Below are positions 14,743 through 58,889 of a stretch of 64,000 nt of DNA, one piece after another. The stretch comes from Batrachochytrium dendrobatidis JAM81. Lineage: Eukaryota; Chytridiomycota; Chytridiomycetes; Rhizophydiales. The position numbers and the translations under genes are program-made. Every line of letters starts with the position of its first letter. Position 1 is the stretch's first letter. The DNA is taken from NCBI RefSeq assembly GCF_000203795.2, contig NW_006281099.1:2979774-3043773 (forward strand), read 5' to 3'. The notes beneath the pieces were generated by a model. It did not search any database. It saw only the letters and a program-made list of their open reading frames with translations, and had not been told where the DNA came from.

Positions 14743-15663
14743 TTATGCATTATATCTTTGCATTGATGTTTTAAACTTTTGGAGCCATGAATCCAATTCT
14801 GGTTTCAAATTCGTGTTATACCAGTCACCTCTAGAATGATGACTGAATAATCTTTCAAGCAGCTCTTGTAGATCCGTTTGTCTGCTAATAAACTGGGTTA
14901 CTAGACTGAGTATATCTTCAATTACCTCTCCAATTAAACTTGGATTCCTATTTAAACCAAGTATTTCCTCGTAAATTTCTACTCGAAGCAATTTGAAAAT
15001 TTCCATAAGCTTGTCCAAAATCTCTCGAAGATCGTCGACAAACTCGGATGCTAGTTGACTATCGGGTGTAAATCTATTAACAAGACTTAAAATATCATAG
15101 ATCCATCTTTCGTAGCTACCAAGGTATGACCAAAATAAAGCCAATTCCGCTCTAAAATTGGTTTCTTGAAGATTTGGTCCAGAACCCATGCCTTTCAGTA
15201 TTGCTTCGGCAGCACGTTGGTGCTGCCTTGAGTTTTTTTTAACAAGATATGTGGATCCATGAGCACCACCTTGATAGCCCGATTGTGAAAATCCCGGTAT
15301 ATTTGTAATTGCCATCAATAGTGAATCAATCTTGCCACCTCGTTCATATTGGTTTTTGGTTTTTTGACGACCAAGTCTGTGTTTTTTCCCAATACCACGT
15401 AAAAGCCCACCGAGATTATAAGACTTTATACGAGCTCCGGGAGTTTGGTTTGAATGATCACCTTGACTGCCGCCAGGACCTTGAGTTGTTGAAGTACTCG
15501 GAAATTCCGGACCACCTGTTGCTTGTGGAACACTTTGGCTATTTAGACTTGGACTTGGACTTGGATCAACAGAGTCGATTGTCTCGCTGGGTTGTGGCAA
15601 AATGGCATGAACACTGGTGGCCAAGGCTGCAATTGTAAAGGCTGAGATGTGTGTGAATTTCAT
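14743..15663 (-). CDS. Secreted protein, lineage-specific family (copy 1)
   Basis: 306 aa from the ATG at 15663, chosen because it starts a clear signal peptide (MKFTHISAFTIAALATSVHA). A Pro/Ser/Gly/Gln-rich low-complexity stretch follows (about 21-75), then a basic patch, then a helix-rich domain of about 200 residues with almost no cysteine, ending WLQKFKTSMQRYNA. No known domain recognised. Its twin lies 2.5 kb downstream (17302-18213). The architecture of signal peptide, disordered linker and variable helical domain resembles expanded secreted families of Batrachochytrium; an effector role is inference only. Confidence 0.8.
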   Translation of the reverse strand: MKFTHISAFTIAALATSVHAILPQPSETIDSVDPSPSPSLNSQSVPQATGGPEFPSTSTTQGPGGSQGDHSNQTPGARIKSYNLGGLLRGIGKKHRLGRQKTKNQYERGGKIDSLLMAITNIPGFSQSGYQGGAHGSTYLVKKNSRQHQRAAEAILKGMGSGPNLQETNFRAELALFWSYLGSYERWIYDILSLVNRFTPDSQLASEFVDDLREILDKLMEIFKLLRVEIYEEILGLNRNPSLIGEVIEDILSLVTQFISRQTDLQELLERLFSHHSRGDWYNTNLKPELDSWLQKFKTSMQRYNA

Positions 15664-16277
15664 TTGATCAAGTATAACTATGTATGTATTATTGGAGGTC
15701 AACGAGCCTGCTTTTATAACCATCACAACAATCGGTTGGAATATTTTTATACATTATTGCTATGTGTTTATTCCGCAGATCAGGGATAAAGGCCAGTATG
15801 AATACACGGTAAGGTGTTGTATGCTAAAATAGATCTACACAGGGCTAGGGTGGTTAGCCCTAAAAGGGTCAAGATTGACAGTGTATGTTCAAATGCTTGG
15901 TTCAAATCCAAACTGAAAATCTTATTCTAGTAGATTGACTATCACAGTTTTGTGTCGTCAATTATTACATCTTCACTTATGACCCTGATGTCTGGTGACC
16001 CTTTTTGGCCATTATACAGAGTACAATCACTTAGTTACAGTCACCGCACAACACCGAGCCTGACGACTTTCTGTTTAGTCAATATGCGGCCCATCAAACT
16101 GAATCGATGATTTGTCCGCATCAACAGTTGTCGATAGTTTAAATTGCCACTCAATTTGGACATCAATGTATACAATCAACTCACATCTAGATTATATCAA
16201 TCTATCAACTTGACGACATTCACACCCACAATCAACATTAACAATTTGGGTTCAATTGGATTGTCCACTATTGGTTC
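15664..16277. other. Upstream region of secreted gene copy 1
   Basis: Promoter side of the secreted gene, duplicated at 18214-18787. Holds blocks identical in both units (e.g. near 15914-15975 and 16031-16265) separated by a divergent patch (about 15770-15900). No gene recognised. Confidence 0.5.
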
Positions 16278-16491
16278 ATGATATGGCCAGCAACCATGTG
16301 TATGGTGAATAGCAAACAGGCTTTATCCGCACTTTCACAAGAGATCAGTCGTGTATATGACATTCCAACCACTACAACTGAAACTGCAACTACAGCCAAC
16401 GGTGATCCAATGACAGTTTCTGGTCATCAGATCATACACTCTGCAATGCCGTTACTATATCCAAACCGTGACTCTGAATCGATATATTTGT
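16278..16491 (+). pseudogene. Short ORF / orphan first exon (unit 1)
   Basis: Opens with ATG at 16278 and reads through QALSALSQEISRVYDIP and a Thr-rich run to ...DSESIYL, where a good donor (TTT/gtgagt, near 16490) stands just before the stop. It looks like the first exon of a gene whose remainder was cut off by unit 2, which starts about 40 bp later. In unit 2 the same ORF (18788-18931) diverges after DPM and stops at once. Product unknown. Confidence 0.4.
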
Positions 16492-16637
16492 GAGTATATT
16501 GTAAAATGGTTGTTTTCAGATCAAAAAGCCAATAAAATCAGCATATCGATATAACAATCTTGTATTGATTCATGATATCAAGTTGGATTGCTTGACAAAA
16601 TATAAATGCTGCAATGATCAATGTTGTTGCTGTTGGT

Positions 16638-16988
16638 TTACAGTTTGGCAGCACCACCTTGGAAACGGGTACAAACATCGGTCCAGTTGATGACATTCCA
16701 TCAGGCAGCAACATAGTTGGCACGAACATTGCGGTATTTGACATAGTAGGCATGTTCCCAGACATCAAGAGCAAGTAAAGTCATGGCACCAGTACCTGCA
16801 AACTGAGGTGCAAACTCGGGATGATCTTGATTAGCAGTGGTCACGATCGACATGGTAGAACTCGAAGGAGTCCAAGTAAGAAACACCCAACCAGATCCGA
16901 ATACACCAAGAGCTGCTGCTGTAAACTGCTGCTTGAATGTCTCGACAGAGCCAAACGACTTGACAAGCTGCTTGCCAAATTCAAAATA
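16638..16988 (-). pseudogene. Mn/Fe superoxide dismutase terminal exon, disrupted (unit 2)
   Basis: Counterpart of 14076-14426. A Trp codon of the conserved AAWWNV motif has become TGA (minus strand, 16703-16701), cutting off the last 21 residues including NVINWTDVC. The upstream part is nearly identical to unit 1. Clear pseudogene. Confidence 0.9.
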
Positions 16989-17301
16989 CTATTTTGACTA
17001 TCTGATTTGGGATTCTTGATGTGTGTGCGTAGTTGTACAACTTGACAGAGTATGATGCCAATATCATGTATATTACCAGTTGTGCAACTATTGCGATTGA
17101 TGTAATACAAACATTACTGTATTTCAACCATCAGTCATCAGTCATCAACCCTGACTCACATCCAACCCAATCTACAAACAATAGAAACTCGATCAAAATT
17201 GTAAATGCAATGGTTTATTCAAATCAGTTGATGACCATGAAACAGATCACAGTTGACTTGCAAACCATGTCAGTAGTTTGATAAAGTAGTTGAGTGTAGC
17301 T

Positions 17302-18213
17302 TTATGCATTATATCTTTGCATTGATGTTTTAAACTTTTGGAGCCATAAAGCTAACTCTAGTCCCAAATGCATGTAGTACCAGTCAATTTTAGAATAACG
17401 CTCAAATAACTCTTTGAATAGTTGTTGTAGATCCGTTTGTCTGCTCATAAATTGGTCGGTTAAATCGAGCATAGCTTTAACTGCATTTTCGAGCAAACCT
17501 GAATCCTCATTTAAATGCAAAACTATTTGATAAATACTTTCATAAAGTACATGGATAATCTCCAGAAATTCTTTAAAAATCTTTCCAAGCCCGTTGATAA
17601 ACTCGGATGATAGTTTACTAATGGCTTCAAATCCATCAAGGAAATTTAGAATATTCTTGACCCATACTTCGTATTCGCCAAGATATGCTGAAAATGAAAG
17701 TAAATGTTTTTTAAACTTTGATGTTTCAGCATTAATGCCTTTCGCTATTACTTCGATAAGTTGCTGTTGTCTTGAATTTTCTTCAACGTGATCTGCGAGT
17801 CCGTAGTCACCACCTTGATAGCCCAATCCTGAAAATTGCGGTATGTTTAAAAGCGATTCCAAGAATAAATCAATAGAATCATTCTGCCCATCTTGAGGTC
17901 GTTTTTTGTATTTTCGATGGCCAGATTTGCGTCCTTGTCCAATACCACATAAAAACTTACTGAGCTTGGAAGATTTTAGACGAACTCTAGGAGTTTGGTT
18001 TGAATGATCGCCTTGACTGCCGCCAGGACCTTGAGTTGTCGAAGTACTCGGAAATTCCGGACCACCTGTTGCTTGTGGAACACTTTGGCTATTTAGACTT
18101 GGACTTGGACTTGGATCAACAGAGTCGATTGTCTCGCTGGGTTGTGGCAAAATGGCATGAACACTGGTGGTCAAGGCTACAATTGTAAAGGCTGAGATGT
18201 GCGTGAATTTCAT
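17302..18213 (-). CDS. Secreted protein, lineage-specific family (copy 2)
   Basis: 303 aa from the ATG at 18213. The signal peptide and first ~75 residues are nearly identical to copy 1 (MKFTHISAFTIVALTTSVHA), as are the last ~15 (WLQKFKTSMQRYNA) and a short internal block (SRQTDLQ). The core between them is only loosely alignable, with many substitutions and small indels but the same helical pattern. The frame is intact, so divergence happened under coding constraint or by recombination with another family member. Function unknown. Confidence 0.8.
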   Translation of the reverse strand: MKFTHISAFTIVALTTSVHAILPQPSETIDSVDPSPSPSLNSQSVPQATGGPEFPSTSTTQGPGGSQGDHSNQTPRVRLKSSKLSKFLCGIGQGRKSGHRKYKKRPQDGQNDSIDLFLESLLNIPQFSGLGYQGGDYGLADHVEENSRQQQLIEVIAKGINAETSKFKKHLLSFSAYLGEYEVWVKNILNFLDGFEAISKLSSEFINGLGKIFKEFLEIIHVLYESIYQIVLHLNEDSGLLENAVKAMLDLTDQFMSRQTDLQQLFKELFERYSKIDWYYMHLGLELALWLQKFKTSMQRYNA

Positions 18214-18933
18214 TTGATCAAGTATAGCTATGTATGTATTAATGAAGATCAACGAACCTGCTTTTATAATCGGCATAACCATATATTAAAATATTTTTAT
18301 ACATTATTGCTGTGTTAATTACCGCATATCAGGGATAAATGTCGGCATTAATATAGGGCTGAGGTGTTCAACCCTAAAATAATCAAGATTGATAATGTCT
18401 GAATGCTTGACTTGAATTAAAGTTGGAAATCTTATTCTAGTAGATTGACTATCACAGTTTTGTGTCGTCAATTATTACATCTCTACTTATGATCTTGATG
18501 TCTGGTGACCCTTTTCAATCACTATACAGAGTACAATCACTTAGTTACAGTCACCACACAACACCAAGCTTGGTGACTTTCTGTTTAGTCAATATGCGGC
18601 CCATCAAACTGAATCGATGATTTGTCCGCATCAACAGTTGTCGATAGTTTAAATTGCCACTCAATTTGGACATCAATGTATACAATCAACTCACATCTAG
18701 ATTATATCAATATATCAACTTGACGACATTCACACCCACAATCAACATTAACAATTTGGGTTCAATTGGATTGTCCACTACTGGTTCATGATATGGCCAG
18801 CAACCATGTGTATGGTGAATAGCAAACAGGCTTTATCCGCACTTTCACAAGAGATCAGTCGTGTATATGACATTCCAACCACTACAACTACAACTACAGC
18901 CAACAGTGATCCAATGTTCCAATTTGCGTGAAT

Positions 18934-28900: not shown

Positions 28901-31900
28901 AACAACTCGTACCATGAGAGTGCATGAAATGCGAAGCGATCCTATTGCTCCATCCTCGGTGATATTTTTAATTTGATGCCATTGGTCCATTTTTACTCCA
29001 CTAAACAAGGATTGTAGGTTAATGGTCACATAGCCAATAGTAGTATCTTTTGAAAGTCGATTTGGATGAAGTAAAATAATCCTCAATGTTCCAAAGTGTG
29101 CAGCAATATCATGAAACATAAACGACTCTGTCCAAATTGAAGTTTCCGCAGTTTTGGCGACCGTACGGGCAAAATTCACATCATCAAGAAAAATAGCGCA
29201 GTATGGTGTTATGGTCTTCATTCCAGGGGGAGTTTTCAAGTCCTTGGCTTCAATAATACGAAGCGTTAAAGATCGCTTGTACTTGCTGCTATTTTTGTTT
29301 ACAAGATTCTCGTTGCGTTTCGTGTTTACACTAAATCCATTTAAACGAGCACATTTGTTACAGCAGCGGGCATACTGTCGTAGCACCTCTGCCCAGTCAT
29401 CCCGTGCAAGCTCTGATTCTGTTACACATGTGTACGAGATTGATTTGTCTCCTTCGGACTGAATAATTTGAAAACTGGGTTTACCAAATGCAGAGGAATC
29501 GATGCAGTGGATAGCACAATTTTCAATAAAAATAACCTCTTTTGGGCGAATCATCTAGTGTTGAATAAAAATGTTACCAGTCCACAAATAACTGTAAAGC
29601 ACTTGAATCCAAGTCAACGGATTTCCAGCAATCAAATGGCTAAATGTCTTACATCAGACATGTCGTAGAGATTAAGCAGGTGTTGTTCTTGACGGAAAAT
29701 TGCCACCCGGACTTTCCAATTTCCCAAAGTATCATCTGTTCAAAAGTAATCATCAGCCCAGCTCAATTATGATGCAAGTTTGATTGGTGCAATTCAAATA
29801 ATATTACTTTTTCGAATATGCATAATTCCTCGTTTCAATTCTCCAGACAAGAGATAATGGAAGCCTTTTATCATTTCTCTATCGTCATTCCGAGTCATCT
29901 GGGAATTATATATTCAAGTTAAAGACCAAACAATAAAAACAATACCAGAGTAAAAACTTACATGGCAAGAAACAAAACTTTCAATGTCGTCTTCAACATT
30001 AATATTTGAAATTTTTTGAGCCAGATCTTTGAGAGCATTCATATGGGACTCGGCCATCTTTATCTCCAATAGGTTTGCTCGTTCTAAAACACTTTTTGAA
30101 GCATAGCAACGATCCTCTTCGTGGCGCCGTAGATTCTAAATAATCATGCCCACAATCATATTAGTATCTTTTTGGTCAATACATACAAAGATATCATTAT
30201 ATACCTGATACAGTTCAGGCAAAAGTCTGCCATAATAATCTTCTTCAGCAGCATTCGCAATCATTTCGCAGGCAGTAAATTTATCTTTGGCATGATCCGC
30301 CTTGTCTTGCGCTGTAGTGGCTTTGATCGCATACTAGTAACAAAAATATCAGCACAACTTGAAATAATATACAATCGAGTTTACATGAAAATGCACATTG
30401 TTGAATATTACCTTTGAGATCTCTTTTTCTTTTGTTCCAGGATTATACTGCGCACGTTGAAAATTTTGCGAAGCGTCAATAGCAGCAACTTGAAGTGAAT
30501 CCATGTCTTTCTTGGACTATATTGTGCATTGAAGAATCAATCAGGATCAGATTTAATCACGATAATGCAACATCAACAACATTCGGGCCATTTGGCATCA
30601 TTTCAAATATAGTGGTAACAAGCCACATTTCATAACAGATTTAAATACCTTGCGCATGGCATGAAATGCATCTCGAACATTTCTATTGTGCTCCTGTCCA
30701 GTCGCAAAATACTATACATAATTGAATGAGTTGGTTGAATATTTAAGCACAAGGAATGTCATAAATCAACAACATACAGCCTTTTTTGATGCCTCCAATT
30801 CCTTGATTTGGTTTTGAAATGGTTCAATAATTAAAAATTGTAACTTTTTTGACATATCATCCTACACCAAAAAATTAAAATAAGTTGATATTGCGTATAT
30901 GTACACCTTTACAGCCATACTCATGCAAAATGTAACACTAAATAGGGATTTCAAAATACATAATAAACTGCCAGTCACATCAAATAATGGGTGCCAAATT
31001 ACTGTACAACACTGTCCACTGATTCTTTTCGTGGTGATTGGTATGCAAACAGTTGCATTCCTAAACGTGCAATCTGCTCCATTGAACTAGATCGCAAACG
31101 TATCTATGGAACTTTATAATACATCACATATAAGTTGTATTGGGAATACTCGAATCCAATATCTGGATTACAATCAACACATCTGGCGATTGTACAGTGT
31201 ACAACCATAGTAAATGAGGACAACCTCAGTTCAAAACTATGGTTTAATTGTGAGCATCATACGATGGATGTTGTGTCGATTGAACAAGAATTGAGTGGCA
31301 ATCTCCAATAGGAAAGCGCAACAAATGCCCAATCATTGTCTATTCCAAAGTAATATGCAAGATAGTGATCCATTTTACGTGAATATGACTATAAATCAAA
31401 GGCATTTAAATGTACATGTGCTTTGGCCAATTGCGCAGTTTGATCAGCCGCTTCTACAAATGCCGCCCAAAGTGAGCTATTTCGTTTAAAATATGATTGC
31501 ATATTGAATTCATAAATTAGTCGTTTAGTCAAAATATTTTGAATGGGTATTCAACAGTAACTATACAAGGTAAAGCAATAGTATGCAATATCAATACCTG
31601 TTTGTGATACTGGATTTGGTGCTAGTCATTGACATCAAATCATTTCCCGGGCTGATCAAATCTGGCATCTCCACGGAAGTAGGACTCATTATAGATTGCT
31701 TTTGCACCATTTGCGATATTTTGCCTGAGTATACGAAATATTTCAAAAATTAATATTTAGTCCAAGTAGCAAGAGTTTGAAAAGACCCGTGATTGGTATT
31801 GTAGCCAGTTGGCAATTGATTACATTCAATTTTGAGTATTGGTATGTGGAGTCATGCAAGTTGAAATGCCGCGTGTCAATATAAAGCAAAGAATAAAGCA

Positions 31901-33456: not shown

Positions 33457-35307
33457 ATGATTGATAAAGTGGGCAGTAGTGTTACCAATTCACAAATGCA
33501 CGTCGGATATATTGTTGCTGAGCGACTCAGAGCACCAAAGAATCCTGTTATTTTATGCCATGGTAACTTGTCTTTTATTACAGCCATATTCACGTAAAAT
33601 GGATCACTATCTTGCATATTACTTTGGAATAGACAATGATTGGGCATTTGTTGCGCTTTCCTATTGGAGATTGCCACTCAATTCTTGTTCAATCGACACA
33701 ACATCCATCGTATGATGCTCACAATTAAACCATAGTTTTGAACTGAGGTTGTCCTCATTTACTATGGTTGTACACTGTACAATCGCCAGATGTGTTGATT
33801 GTAATCCAGATATTGGATTCGAGTATTCCCAATACAACTTATATGTGATGTATTATAAAGTTCCATAGATACGTTTGCGATCTAGTTCAATGGAGCAGAT
33901 TGCACGTTTAGGAATGCAACTGTTTGCATACCAATCACCACGAAAGGAATCAGTGGACAGTGTTGTACAGTAATTTGGCACCCATTATTTGGTGGGATTG
34001 GCAGTTTATTATGTATTTTGAAATCCCTATTTAGTGTTACATTTTGCATGAATATGGCTGCAAATTATGAATCCAGTTGCTACTCCCTCGAATATCGAAT
34101 TTTCCATTATATTAATTTACCAACTGTCGATTTGAAATTAAATGATATTATTGGATATGTCAAACTCAGGTTTATTTGGCTATGATAGAATAGGTAAGTT
34201 GATTAAATTACATGCATTTGATGGGGTTTGAATAAACAAAGCTAATTTTGGTTTGAATTCAAACACTCATCTTGACTCTTGTTGACTATATCCCACATAA
34301 CAGGGCCACAGTCAGTACCATTTCTACAGCTAAAATACTGGAGAGGAATCTATGATGCTTTACAAGATCTAGGATGCGATGTGCATATTGCCCGTGTTGG
34401 TTCAGTTTCACCCATTAAAACTAGAGCTCACCAACTTACCTCCTATATTGATCGTACCACCCCCGGAAAATCCGTTAATCTTATTGCTCATTCTATGGGT
34501 GGTTTAGATTGTCGCTACATGGTTACTCACATATCACCCAAATCGTTCCGTATTGGATCCATCACAACTGTTGCAACGCCTCATTGCGGCTCCTCTTTTA
34601 TGGACTGGTGTCGCGATGCACTTGGTCTTGGAAAGCTTCAACGCTATGTTCAACATTATGCCGATGATAGTATTGCTACCTCTATTTTAAACACTACAAG
34701 TTCAACCTTGTGTGATATTGACAATGACAGATCTTGGTCACCTACACAATCCTTATCATCACAAGTGTCGGCCAAAAAGTCGTCATCACAGCTGTCCAAG
34801 CCACGTTCTTTTAAATCTAAACAACAGTCTGATTCTGTGTCAAAAACAATACACTTTTTGGAGAGTCGGGATATTTCATCTGATTTTCCGTCCTGCTCAT
34901 ACAAACCAGTGGCCAAGTCTCATCCTATTATTCGTGCAATATTCTCACCTATGGATGCTCCTGCATTTACAAACCTCACACGGGCTTACTGTGCAGCATT
35001 CAATCAAGCAACACCAGATGATCCTAATATATATTACGCCTCCTATGCCGCTGTTGCGGATGTTAGTAAACTGGCTCCGCTTCACTTTTCCCATCAAATC
35101 ATTAATCGATTAGAAGGAGCTAATGATGGTTTGGTATCTTTAAAATCTGCACAATGGGGTGAGTTTATGGGTGCAGTAGACTGCGATCATTGGGATTTGG
35201 TACCTCCCAAAGTGCGTGGATTGACTAGCGCGATTACTGGTAAACGATTTGATGCCATTGGGCTATACCTTCGAATGGCCACCGAATTGGCTGATCGTGG
35301 GCTATAA
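33457..35307 (+). CDS. Alpha/beta-hydrolase lipase (triacylglycerol lipase-like)
   Basis: Exons 33457-33562, 34170-34193 and 34304-35307 join in phase to 377 aa. The first exon ends KNPVILCHG and the 24-bp second exon encodes LFGYDRI, together forming the oxyanion strand HGLFG. Exon 3 has the nucleophile elbow LIAHSMGGLD, then ATPHCGSSF; the likely acid is in NDGLVSLKSAQWG and the His in CDHWDLV. A Ser-rich insert (about 155-215) lies in the cap region. The 607-bp first intron carries a whole MITE (33577-34068). The start at 33457 is the first Met in the open frame; there is an in-frame stop at about 33400, and a further 5' exon is possible. Substrate inferred from family only. Confidence 0.8.
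33577..34068 (+). mobile_element. MITE-like element in lipase intron 1
   Basis: Left end attacagccatattcacgtaa, right end cattttgcatgaatatggct; about 490 bp and nearly identical to the inverted copy at 30908-31397. Begins 14 bp after the exon 1 donor. Relative to host-gene transcription both copies have the same orientation. Confidence 0.85.
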
Positions 35308-35419
35308 GTTTGAATTGACATACTGTTGCTTTCAAAATACATTTTTTTATTTCAAAACAATGTGTGGTATTTTGTTTTCTAGATACTTGGTCGGTATATC
35401 TAAACATTTGCAATGATTG

Positions 35420-36265
35420 CTGAAAGGCTGTTAATGATGTGGAACTTGATTCGTCTTGAATGCCCATTCTGCTACTCTTTAGTTGGAATATGATCTGTTT
35501 CCTTTCAAAACTGTAGTTTTAACTTTCAATGGACCAGCAGCTCCAAAAACTCGAATTATGACAAAGTATTTTAACCATTCGACAATTTCAAAAAGGATTC
35601 GCGTAATAAACGCTTGCATTATCTTGCAGTTGAATCTCTTGTTTTGGAATGGGAAATGGTTGACTATTGATTGCTGTTGGATATTGACTACGTTGATGAA
35701 TATTTTCAGTTGTCTATCAACACAATGGTCATTATATAATACAGTTACACCACGGATTTAAACCGAGATGGTTTTTGGTAGTCATACATTGTGCCATCAC
35801 CAGATTCATCCATTGCAATCCAAATATTAGATTCGACTATTTCCAATACAACTCATGTCTGTTGTAACTTGAAATCAAACATGGTTGTTTTAGTTCAAGA
35901 AACCAATGATTGCAGTCTAGGAAATTCAACATGTTCCATGTCAATCATCAGGAGAAAGTCTAGTCAACTAAAGAGTTTAAGAGTACAATGTTGTCCAGTA
36001 GATTGACACTCATCATATCATGAGACTGACTTTACTTTGACATCCTTATTTAAATGGTTCATTTTACATGAATGCTGTTGTAGATACAACTCCAGTCATC
36101 GTAGTCGTTTGAAAAAGATAGACTTTATTGATTGATAATGAATCTTGCAACAATGACCCATATTGAAAACAAAGTATATCGCTACAGGATCTAGAAACTC
36201 GCCCATAGTGTACTAAATCAAATGATAAAATGATCACAGCACACGATATGTGGGACTACCAGGTA
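35420..36265 (-). repeat. Inverted duplication of the LeuRS-carrier intergenic region (copy A)
   Basis: About 0.84 kb that is the reverse complement of 58037-58889 with, by eye, a single 1-bp indel near 35608. It contains the last ~11 codons of the LeuRS gene, the intergenic repeat and the first ~17 codons of the carrier gene (MGIQDESSSTSLTAFQQ), now between the lipase and ALDH7A1. The ends fall inside coding sequence of the source genes, not at transposon termini. Confidence 0.92.
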
Positions 36266-36395
36266 AATGCTCAGTCAGTGTTTCAATAAATACTCTGCAA
36301 AGTGAATGCAATTACAAGTGTTTAAGCAATCAAAATAAATGTATTTTTTTGGATAATTTCCTTCACTTACAAGTAATTCAACCTACACATTCATC

Positions 36396-57000: not shown

Positions 57001-58071
57001 TCTTAAACTTTATACGGAAAAGGAATGGATTGAAGAGTCTGTTGCGCTGATTTCCAAGGACAGTCTTCGCTCAGGTCTACTCACTTGGAACGACAAAGTG
57101 TTTGCCTCTGAGATAGATTATGTTATCAATAATGCTGAAAAGGCTTATAGTGGCATGATGTACCGTGATGCCTTGAAATGCAGTTTCTATGATTTACAGC
57201 ATGCGCGTAACGAGTATCGCAAAGCTACTACTGGTCAAGGAATCAATCTCGCCAATTCGCACAATGAATCGTTTGAAGGCCTGCACAAGGACATGATTAT
57301 CCGCTTTATTGAAGTTGAAGCTGTACTAATGGCTCCTGTCACTCCACATTGGTCTGAGCACATTTGGTCAGATGTTCTTAAAAAGTCAAAATCGATCATG
57401 TTTGAAAAATGGCCCAAAACATCTCCAGTTGATATTGGTCTTCTTGCTGCTGCTTCGTATGTTCGTGAACTTGGCTCCAAAATCAGATCTGCCGATGACA
57501 CAGCTGCCAAGAAGCGATCTAAAAAGGGTGCCAAGTCTGAGCCTGTTGTTGAATCGGACAAGCCTAAAAAACTTCATCTCTATATTGCAATTGAATTTCC
57601 CGAATGGCAAGAAAAGGTCGTGGCCATTCTCCAGCAAACCTGGGACGAAGCCACTCAAAAGCTCAATGGTCAGGAAAAGGAGATCTTGGCCAAAGAAGGT
57701 CTTTTGCAAGATAAACGCGTCATGCCTTTTGTTGCTCTGATCAAGGTATAGTTTCTATAATGCCTGGTGTACTTGATTGCATTACTTTCAATTATACTGA
57801 TCAAGTTGTATGATGCTGTAATTTATGTTGAAAGAAAAATGTCGAAGTTGCTGGAAAAAGTGCTATGGATCGCAAACTGCTATTTTCTGAAATGGATACT
57901 CTTAACTTGAACCTCGACTTTCTCCGTCGTGACTTGATTGTGATGAAGATTTCAGAAATTCGTCTTTTGGCAAAGGAAACCCTTGTTGCTGGCGTGGATG
58001 GCATAGACGAAGAGGATATTAAAAAGGCCAGTGCTGCTTTACCTGGTAGTCCCACATATCGTGTGCTGTGA
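54068..58071 (+). CDS. LARS1: Cytosolic leucyl-tRNA synthetase
   Basis: Class Ia synthetase charging tRNA-Leu in the cytosol (yeast Cdc60 / human LARS1 type). Eight exons join in phase to 1122 aa: 54068-54097, 54214-54489, 54570-54633, 54705-54793, 54873-55010, 55117-55779, 55874-57745, 57835-58071. HIGH-type motif in [16 protein letters not shown] near residue 55; large CP1 editing insert with [20 protein letters not shown]-type motif [10 protein letters not shown]; a Lys-rich C-terminal segment ([12 protein letters not shown]) and the eukaryotic C-terminal extension. No mitochondrial presequence. Its last ~11 codons are duplicated in inverted orientation at 36.2 kb. Exon 2 start rests on an AAAG acceptor and is slightly uncertain. 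Confidence 0.95.
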
Positions 58072-58889
58072 TCATTTTATCATTTGATTTAGTACACTAT
58101 GGGCGAGTTTCTAGATCCTGTAGCGATATACTTTGTTTTCAATATGGGTCATTGTTGCAAGATTCATTATCAATCAATAAAGTCTATCTTTTTCAAACAA
58201 CTACGATGACTGGAGTTGTATCTACAACAGCATTCATGTAAAATGAACCATTTAAATAAGGATGTCAAAGTAAAGTCAGTCTCATGATATGATGAGTGTC
58301 AATCTACTGGACAACATTGTACTCTTAAACTCTTTAGTTGACTAGACTTTCTCCTGATGATTGACATGGAACATGTTGAATTTCCTAGACTGCAATCATT
58401 GGTTTCTTGAACTAAAACAACCATGTTTGATTTCAAGTTACAACAGACATGAGTTGTATTGGAAATAGTCGAATCTAATATTTGGATTGCAATGGATGAA
58501 TCTGGTGATGGCACAATGTATGACTACCAAAAACCATCTCGGTTTAAATCCGTGGTGTAACTGTATTATATAATGACCATTGTGTTGATAGACAACTGAA
58601 AATATTCATCAACGTAGTCAATATCCAACAGCAATCAATAGTCAACCATTTCCCATTCCAAAACAAGAGATTCAACTGCAAGATAATGCAAGCGCTTTAT
58701 TACGCGAATCCTTTTTGAAATTGTCGAATGGTTAAAATACTTTGTCATAATTCGAGTTTTTGGAGCTGCTGGTCCATTGAAAGTTAAAACTACAGTTTTG
58801 AAAGGAAACAGATCATATTCCAACTAAAGAGTAGCAGAATGGGCATTCAAGACGAATCAAGTTCCACATCATTAACAGCCTTTCAGCAG
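58037..58889 (+). repeat. Source copy of the inverted duplication (copy B)
   Basis: Spans the 3' end of LeuRS, the 0.77-kb intergenic DNA and the 5' end of the carrier gene; reverse complement of 35420-36265. Includes a MITE-like segment with a terminus near 58217 (aacagcattcatgtaaaatg). Regarded as the source because both flanking genes are intact here. Confidence 0.92.

What the first reader, a model, noticed from the sequence alone, without database searches (positions are those of the whole stretch)
14743..18213. Tandem secreted-protein twins: identical flanks, diverged core
The two genes sit in a recent tandem duplication whose noncoding flanks and SOD remnants are nearly identical by eye. 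Their signal peptides, first ~75 residues and last ~15 residues are also nearly identical. Yet about 200 residues in the middle have diverged so far that only short blocks align, while both frames stay open. Neutral drift would alter flanks first. The pattern implies either strong diversifying selection on the secreted core or replacement of the core by gene conversion with another family member, a cassette-like way to generate variants in a presumed host-facing protein.
Basis: partly seen in the sequence, partly recalled or inferred. Interest (0 to 1): 0.88.

Follow-up and report, generated by a model that had tools for sequence, protein, structure and literature searches.

The report
Fungal secreted-protein family with exchanged ends
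Two neighbouring genes of the frog-killing chytrid fungus belong to a family of about ten secreted-protein genes whose start and surroundings appear to be kept alike by exchange of DNA between copies, while the middle of each protein is old, stable and shaped by selection for difference.

Summary
The pattern is real. Genes A (14743-15663, -) and B (17302-18213, -) share codons 1-75, the last ~15 codons and most flanking DNA, but differ at 210 of 609 core bases. The genome is Batrachochytrium dendrobatidis, probably JAM81. It holds nine complete family genes and one cut at a contig end; eight of the nine share the constant N-block, m3148's has diverged.

A and B are not a recent duplicate pair: their cores are old (dS 0.51, against 0.08 at the N-end; 3' flank 3.2%). 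A's core is 99.5% identical to that of a gene 270 kb away, whose flanks differ more than its core. Of those flank differences 30 of 39 are variants shared with other copies; upstream and core trees reject each other. So ectopic exchange probably keeps the ends alike and stops where cores differ too much.

Diversifying selection on the core is also supported (29% of codons at omega ~3; LRT 43 against at most 9.4 in 120 null simulations), but cannot explain the synonymous contrast. Function and fold remain unknown.

The parts
14743..15663 (-). Gene A: secreted protein, 306 aa, single open frame from the conserved ATG
   Evidence: family hits
17302..18213 (-). Gene B: secreted protein, 303 aa
   Evidence: family hits
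15439..15663 (-). Gene A constant N-block (codons 1-75): signal-peptide-like start, then acidic S/T/P-rich segment
   Evidence: 97% identical to B; ten copies in genome. Signal peptide judged by eye, no predictor was run
17989..18213 (-). Gene B constant N-block (codons 1-75)
14789..15438 (-). Gene A variable core: basic linker, then a region with helix-like periodicity (computed on B); 99.5% identical to C1:3264909-3265826 (m3264), 65.5% to B
17348..17988 (-). Gene B variable core; nearest core is C1:3267484-3268503 (m3267), 88%
14743..14788 (-). Gene A C-end, shared with B and m3264
17302..17347 (-). Gene B C-end
15664..15913 (-). A proximal upstream region, class I (with m3264, m17a, m3146; m3070 intermediate)
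   Evidence: support 99 for the class II clade in the upstream tree
18214..18463 (-). B proximal upstream region, class II (with m3267, m3141, m3148); 81% identical to A
15942..16440 (.). Upstream flank of unit A, 90-100% identical to unit B in 50-base windows
18452..18916 (.). Upstream flank of unit B; copies at further places in the genome
14076..14420 (-). SOD remnant of unit A: 3' part of an Fe/Mn-SOD last exon, frame open
16638..16982 (-). SOD remnant of unit B: same fragment with one in-frame TGA
   Evidence: the match to the longer SOD copies ends at window 16982

Best explanation
A and B are two members of a secreted-protein family whose named hits are all B. dendrobatidis; this genome has about ten copies. 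The cores (after residue ~75) are old paralogous types under diversifying selection. The surroundings of each core (upstream region, N-block with signal peptide, C-end, 3' flank) are kept alike, and are re-dealt among cores, by ectopic recombination (gene conversion and/or unequal exchange) between copies up to 270 kb apart and in both orientations. Exchange is inferred to stop at the core because the cores are too different to pair, so a border forms at about the same place across the family. Shown here: family-wide pattern, old cores, shared variants in flanks, conflict of upstream and core trees, a class of core codons with excess nonsynonymous change. Inferred: that gene conversion is the process, that heterology stops it, and that the proteins act outside the cell, plausibly at the host surface, as a set of variants presented on one common export segment.
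For: Old cores: core dS 0.51 for A-B, median 0.50 over 36 pairs of nine genes, against N-block median 0.08. Core stable where recently shared: A against m3264 differs at 3/624 core bases but 39/1497 flank and N-block bases (Fisher p = 9e-4); 30 of those 39 differences have both states in other members, where 18.5% of columns are polymorphic (binomial p = 4e-15). Same core in other records: 9 pairs, core 21/1752 against N-block 25/667 residues (p = 1.5e-4), the reverse of the paralog pattern (0.57 core, 0.08 N-block; m3148 and the pairs A-m3264 and B-m3267 left out). Trees: upstream data reject the core tree (AU 1e-5) and core data reject the other three trees (AU < 1e-39); PHI p = 0.001 for upstream plus N-block. 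Flank distance shows no significant correlation with core distance in 15 overlapping Mantel tests on 6-9 genes (lowest p 0.129). m3070 and m3141 have sister cores but lie on opposite sides of the upstream split. Selection: M1a-M2a LRT 43.3, class omega 3.1 with 29% of codons; each third on its own tree LRT 7.7, 32.5, 11.6; N-block LRT 0.56; 0 of 120 null simulations reached it, max 9.4.
Against: N-block data alone do not reject the core tree (AU 0.10), nor do 3' flank data (0.067); PHI is not significant in the 3' flank (12 sites, p = 0.80) or SOD segment (9 sites, p = 0.41). Of the nine same-core pairs, three have no N-block change and mB/P0002 is about even (core 11/199, N 5/73). Core omega over all codons is 1.19, not clearly above 1 (p = 0.084), so much of the core divergence could be loose constraint. 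PHI is also significant inside the core. Partners of the other records' proteins were chosen by core similarity, not by position. The Mantel tests have little power. No expression or fold data.
Confidence: 0.74

Rival explanations
1. Core-cassette replacement: a unit keeps its flanks and receives a different core from another family member. Not exclusive of the best explanation.
For: A and m3264 share a core 270 kb apart that is less diverged than its flanks, and the longest difference-free run of the pair lies in the core. PHI is significant within the core, and the first third of m17a's core is 85% like A but later thirds at most 64% like any member.
Against: Between records the core is the steadier part in the pooled counts. 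No silent donor core turned up: a genome search with the whole B protein gave 12 matches, which are the family genes (one in two pieces) and one weak hit without signal peptide; this was not repeated with A's core alone or with a profile.
Confidence: 0.25
2. Diversifying selection alone on a recent tandem duplicate, with ordinary drift in the flanks.
For: Codon models give a class with omega about 3 in the core and none in the N-block.
Against: Synonymous core divergence is 0.51 against 0.08 in the N-block and 25/778 bases in the 3' flank; the A-m3264 pair shows the opposite contrast.
Confidence: 0.05
3. Ends and flanks conserved by purifying selection on sequence (export signal, regulation, SOD exon), while cores drift.
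For: N-block omega 0.71 is below that of the core; six of seven SOD remnants keep an open frame.
Against: N-block omega is not clearly below 1 (p = 0.22). m3148's N-block is only ~80% identical to the others although its core is not an outlier, so the block can diverge. Noncoding flanks and synonymous N-block sites are also alike, and the variants are shared between copies.
Confidence: 0.12
4. A local mutation hot spot or targeted hypermutation in the core.
For: Synonymous as well as nonsynonymous sites are diverged in the core.
Against: The A core differs from m3264 at 3/624 bases, and same-core proteins of other records at 21/1752 residues; a hot spot would show there first.
Confidence: 0.02

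Closest known systems
Secreted-protein 'tribes' of Batrachochytrium (PMC5364385, PMC9926174; passages seen)
   Same: Families of secreted proteins, some without recognisable domain and lineage-restricted; PMC9926174 reports positively selected Bd genes enriched in repeat-rich regions
   Different: Whether these genes are in a named tribe could not be checked; the passages seen report no constant-end/variable-core pattern or conversion between copies
Uncharacterised secreted genes with omega >= 1 in Bd lineages (PMC3744429; passages seen)
   Same: Secreted, uncharacterised, signs of positive selection, in the same species
   Different: That work measured dN and dS for each gene across isolates; here selection and exchange are between paralogs
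Arrays of fast-evolving secreted proteins in snakes, such as small serum proteins (PMC6609765; passages seen), and venom toxin families (recalled)
   Same: Gene arrays; accelerated coding sequence beside less diverged noncoding sequence
   Different: Unrelated proteins; there little-diverged introns were read as recent branching, while here the flanks look younger than the cores because of exchange
Conotoxin-like precursors: constant signal and pro-part, variable mature part (recalled)
   Same: Layout of constant export segment and variable mature region
   Different: No cysteine-rich mature peptide here (0-2 cysteines after residue 20 in eight members)

Membership tests
Multigene family under concerted evolution by ectopic gene conversion | Similarity of the converted part independent of core relatedness and physical distance | tested here: met
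   B's 3' flank and SOD segment is 96-97% identical to five copies 73-270 kb away and 98% to the neighbour A, over about 790-840 bases; shorter matches include m3148 at 89%. 15 Mantel tests not significant, on few genes
Multigene family under concerted evolution by ectopic gene conversion | Conflicting trees or recombination signal along the unit | tested here: met
   Upstream and core trees reject each other, PHI p = 0.001; but N-block and 3' flank data do not reject the core tree
Multigene family under concerted evolution by ectopic gene conversion | Paralogs within a species closer than orthologs between species | not testable with these tools
   No homolog outside B. dendrobatidis in three searches
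Secreted effector family under diversifying selection | Signal peptide | tested here: inconclusive
   The N-end looks like a signal peptide by eye; no predictor available
Secreted effector family under diversifying selection | Codon class with omega > 1 in the mature part | tested here: met
Secreted effector family under diversifying selection | Expression or action during host contact | not testable with these tools
   No expression data; six gene ids found in no held paper text
Known Bd families (M36, CBM18, aspartyl protease, S41, lipase) | The family's Pfam domain | tested here: not met
   10 members scanned at E up to 1: 17 families listed, none of these; best E 0.0029, each family in at most 2 members
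Batrachochytrium secreted tribes of PMC5364385 / PMC9926174 | Membership in the published gene lists | not tested
Cysteine-rich toxin precursors | Cysteine-rich mature peptide | tested here: not met
   0-2 cysteines in eight members

The most novel reading that the evidence does not exclude
The family is a standing variation system in a mostly clonally spreading (recalled) vertebrate pathogen: near-identical flanks and export segments act as recombination handles, so that old, selected cores can be re-paired with different upstream classes and N-blocks (and occasionally copied whole), while heterology protects the cores from being homogenised.
Probability: 0.15. Interest if true: 0.8.

Novelty: new variant of a known kind. 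Interest (0 to 1): 0.55.

Why it matters
If right, this separates two processes often confounded in pathogen gene families: exchange that keeps the frame of a gene uniform, and selection that keeps its exposed part different. It gives a defined, roughly ten-gene test case in B. dendrobatidis where upstream class, N-block and core can be followed as separate modules across isolates. It also warns that tandem copies with near-identical flanks need not be recent duplicates, and that flank identity must not be used to date them.

Tried and rejected
Known domain or fold: Pfam scans and a profile search of solved structures gave only weak, scattered hits, many of them to helical proteins; Exo70_C (E 0.0036, below cut-off, 1 of 10 members) was not accepted. 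Structure prediction was asked for 14 times and never accepted, so no fold search was made. Relatives outside the species: none. The C7:64108 hit lacks the signal peptide and looks low-complexity; dropped. Papers naming six gene ids of the family: none; a search for three locus-tag prefixes gave 37 papers, and none of the 20 listed is on this fungus.

Rows dropped: the gene truncated at the C17 end (m17b) from all core work; m3264 from codon models (near copy of A); m3148 and m17a from SOD counts, because they have no SOD remnant directly downstream. still included those unalignable columns, so its run lengths in the SOD segment are inflated and not used. The first A-m3264 flank count (56/1727) included edge columns beyond the repeat and the distal upstream part; (39/1497) replaces it. 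In one search, P0010 (N-end differs), P0013 (no partner core) and P0016 (truncated) were left out, as were P0001, P0003, P0005 and P0011 (taken to be this genome's own). P0009 was paired with A; paired with m3264 it differs more (core 4/202, residues 21-75 7/55).

Full report
What is there. Gene A (window 14743-15663, minus) and gene B (17302-18213, minus) are open frames of 306 and 303 residues. Both begin MKFTHISAFTI.., which looks like a signal peptide (by eye), then an acidic S/T/P-rich stretch to residue 75, a basic linker, and a region whose hydrophobic moment, computed for B, suggests amphipathic helices. Downstream of each lies the 3' part of an Fe/Mn-SOD last exon; B's copy has one in-frame TGA. 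An apparently full SOD gene stands at C1:3072441-3073300 (reading) and, by longer open frame, two more on C17, so the remnants look like pieces carried along with the unit.

Where it is. The window is C1:2979774-3043773 of a 23.49-Mb genome. C1 has the same length (4,429,270) as the longest contig given for proteins named B. dendrobatidis JAM81, so this is probably JAM81. Searches of 5.8 billion proteins gave 16, 15 and 16 hits; every named one is B. dendrobatidis. The genome has nine complete family genes: A, B, m3070, m3141, m3146, m3148, m3264, m3267 on C1 (named by position in kb) and m17a on the 18.8-kb contig C17, plus m17b cut by the C17 end. C17 shares 1.28 kb at 100% with C1:3073299-3074581 and may be an unplaced piece of the array.

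The pattern is family-wide. The mean identity over 36 pairs is 92-96% in alignment codons 1-60, 83% in 61-80 and 63-73% in the core windows. The SOD segment is 96-99% alike among the seven genes that have it; the 300 bases after the stop are 92-99% alike, 88-91% for m3148. The 250 bases before the ATG fall into two classes, A in one and B in the other (81% alike), with m3070 intermediate. The nearest relative changes from segment to segment: for A it is m3070 (far upstream), m17a (mid upstream), m3264 (proximal upstream), m17a (N-block), m3264 (core and C-end), m3146 (3' flank) and m3141 (SOD).

The cores are old, the ends young. For A-B, core dS is 0.51 and dN 0.46, N-block dS 0.08 and dN 0.012; synonymous counts, rounded, 45/120 against 4/53, p = 4e-5. 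Over 36 pairs the medians are 0.50 against 0.08. m3148 is a useful exception: its N-block dS to the others is 0.20-0.32, while its core dS (0.36-0.51 to seven members, 0.88 to m3146) is like theirs, so its N-end seems to have escaped homogenisation.

Signs of exchange. A and m3264, 270 kb apart, differ at 3/624 core bases but 39/1497 flank and N-block bases; 30 of the 39 have both states elsewhere in the family. Nine same-core pairs between this genome and other records differ at 21/1752 core residues and 25/667 N-block residues; in 19 of the 25 the other record's residue occurs at that place in another gene of this genome (counted from the list). For m3148 against P0014 the core is unchanged (0/205) while six N-block residues differ, five of them with this genome's residue being one found in other members. 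Three of the nine pairs have no N-block change. One record prefix, MT418, is given as Bd-BRAZIL strain CLFT044 in PMC12204190 (passage); strains for O5D80, QVD99 and BDV3 were not established. AU and PHI tests support reassortment of upstream against core; N-block and 3' flank data alone do not reject the core tree, and PHI is not significant in the 3' flank or SOD segment.

Selection. With eight genes and 207 core codons, M0 gives omega 1.19 (against 1: p = 0.084), M2a is favoured over M1a by LRT 43.3 with 29% of codons at omega 3.1, and M8 over M7 by 46.3. The middle third is strongest (omega 1.61, p = 0.006; LRT 32.5); the N-block shows nothing (LRT 0.56). The codon code was written here and not checked against PAML; the simulated 95% points (5.2 and 4.6) lie near or below the chi-square value, which is its only validation.

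How it most likely works. Units of about 2.5 kb (upstream, gene, SOD piece) multiplied long ago and were spread in blocks; the A-B pair has a counterpart pair m3264-m3267 in the same order. Homologous exchange between units keeps the alike parts alike and moves upstream classes and N-blocks between cores. Where cores differ by a third of their bases, pairing is expected to fail (inference), so tracts end there and the border stays sharp. Selection on the core adds nonsynonymous change. The secreted place of action and any host contact are inference.

What is known. PMC5364385 and PMC9926174 (passages seen) describe secreted tribes and a two-speed genome in Batrachochytrium; PMC3744429 (passages seen) reports an enrichment of uncharacterised secreted genes with omega >= 1 in two lineages. 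The term superoxide does not occur in the main texts of PMC5364385, PMC9926174, PMC12204190 and PMC11797018, nor gene conversion in PMC5364385, PMC9926174, PMC12204190 and PMC3744429. Literature searches (listings) showed no description of this family, but supplements could not be read and subscription papers are mostly not held. Constant-end, variable-core secreted families are a known kind; the part that may be new here is exchange that re-deals upstream class and export segment among stable, selected cores in this fungus.

Noticed in passing
window 16638-18213: The JAM81 gene model behind P0005 (BATDEDRAFT_85342, source name Manganese/i..., with PF02777) joins most of gene B to the SOD remnant and ends where the remnant has its TGA. 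It looks like a mis-annotated fusion that puts an SOD name on a family member.
   Followed up: partly
window 35418-36267 and 58038-58888: A pair of inverted repeats, about 850 bases, 100% identical, 22 kb apart, with only shorter, weaker matches elsewhere among the 40 scored of 277 candidates; could be a recent transposed or inverted duplicate.
   Followed up: partly
window 30908-31394 and 33578-34064: Inverted repeat, 487 bases, 98% complementary, 2.2 kb between arms, like a transposon with terminal inverted repeats; part of one arm matches a dispersed repeat on C17.
   Followed up: no
C1:3267484-3268503 (L013): m3267 carries an internal duplication of about 40 residues early in its core, absent from the other eight genes.
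   Followed up: no
C17:14813-15694 (L015): m17a has a long acidic, N/P/E-rich repeat tail after the core and no SOD remnant directly downstream; its core looks mosaic (first third 85% like A, later thirds at most 64% like any member).
   Followed up: no
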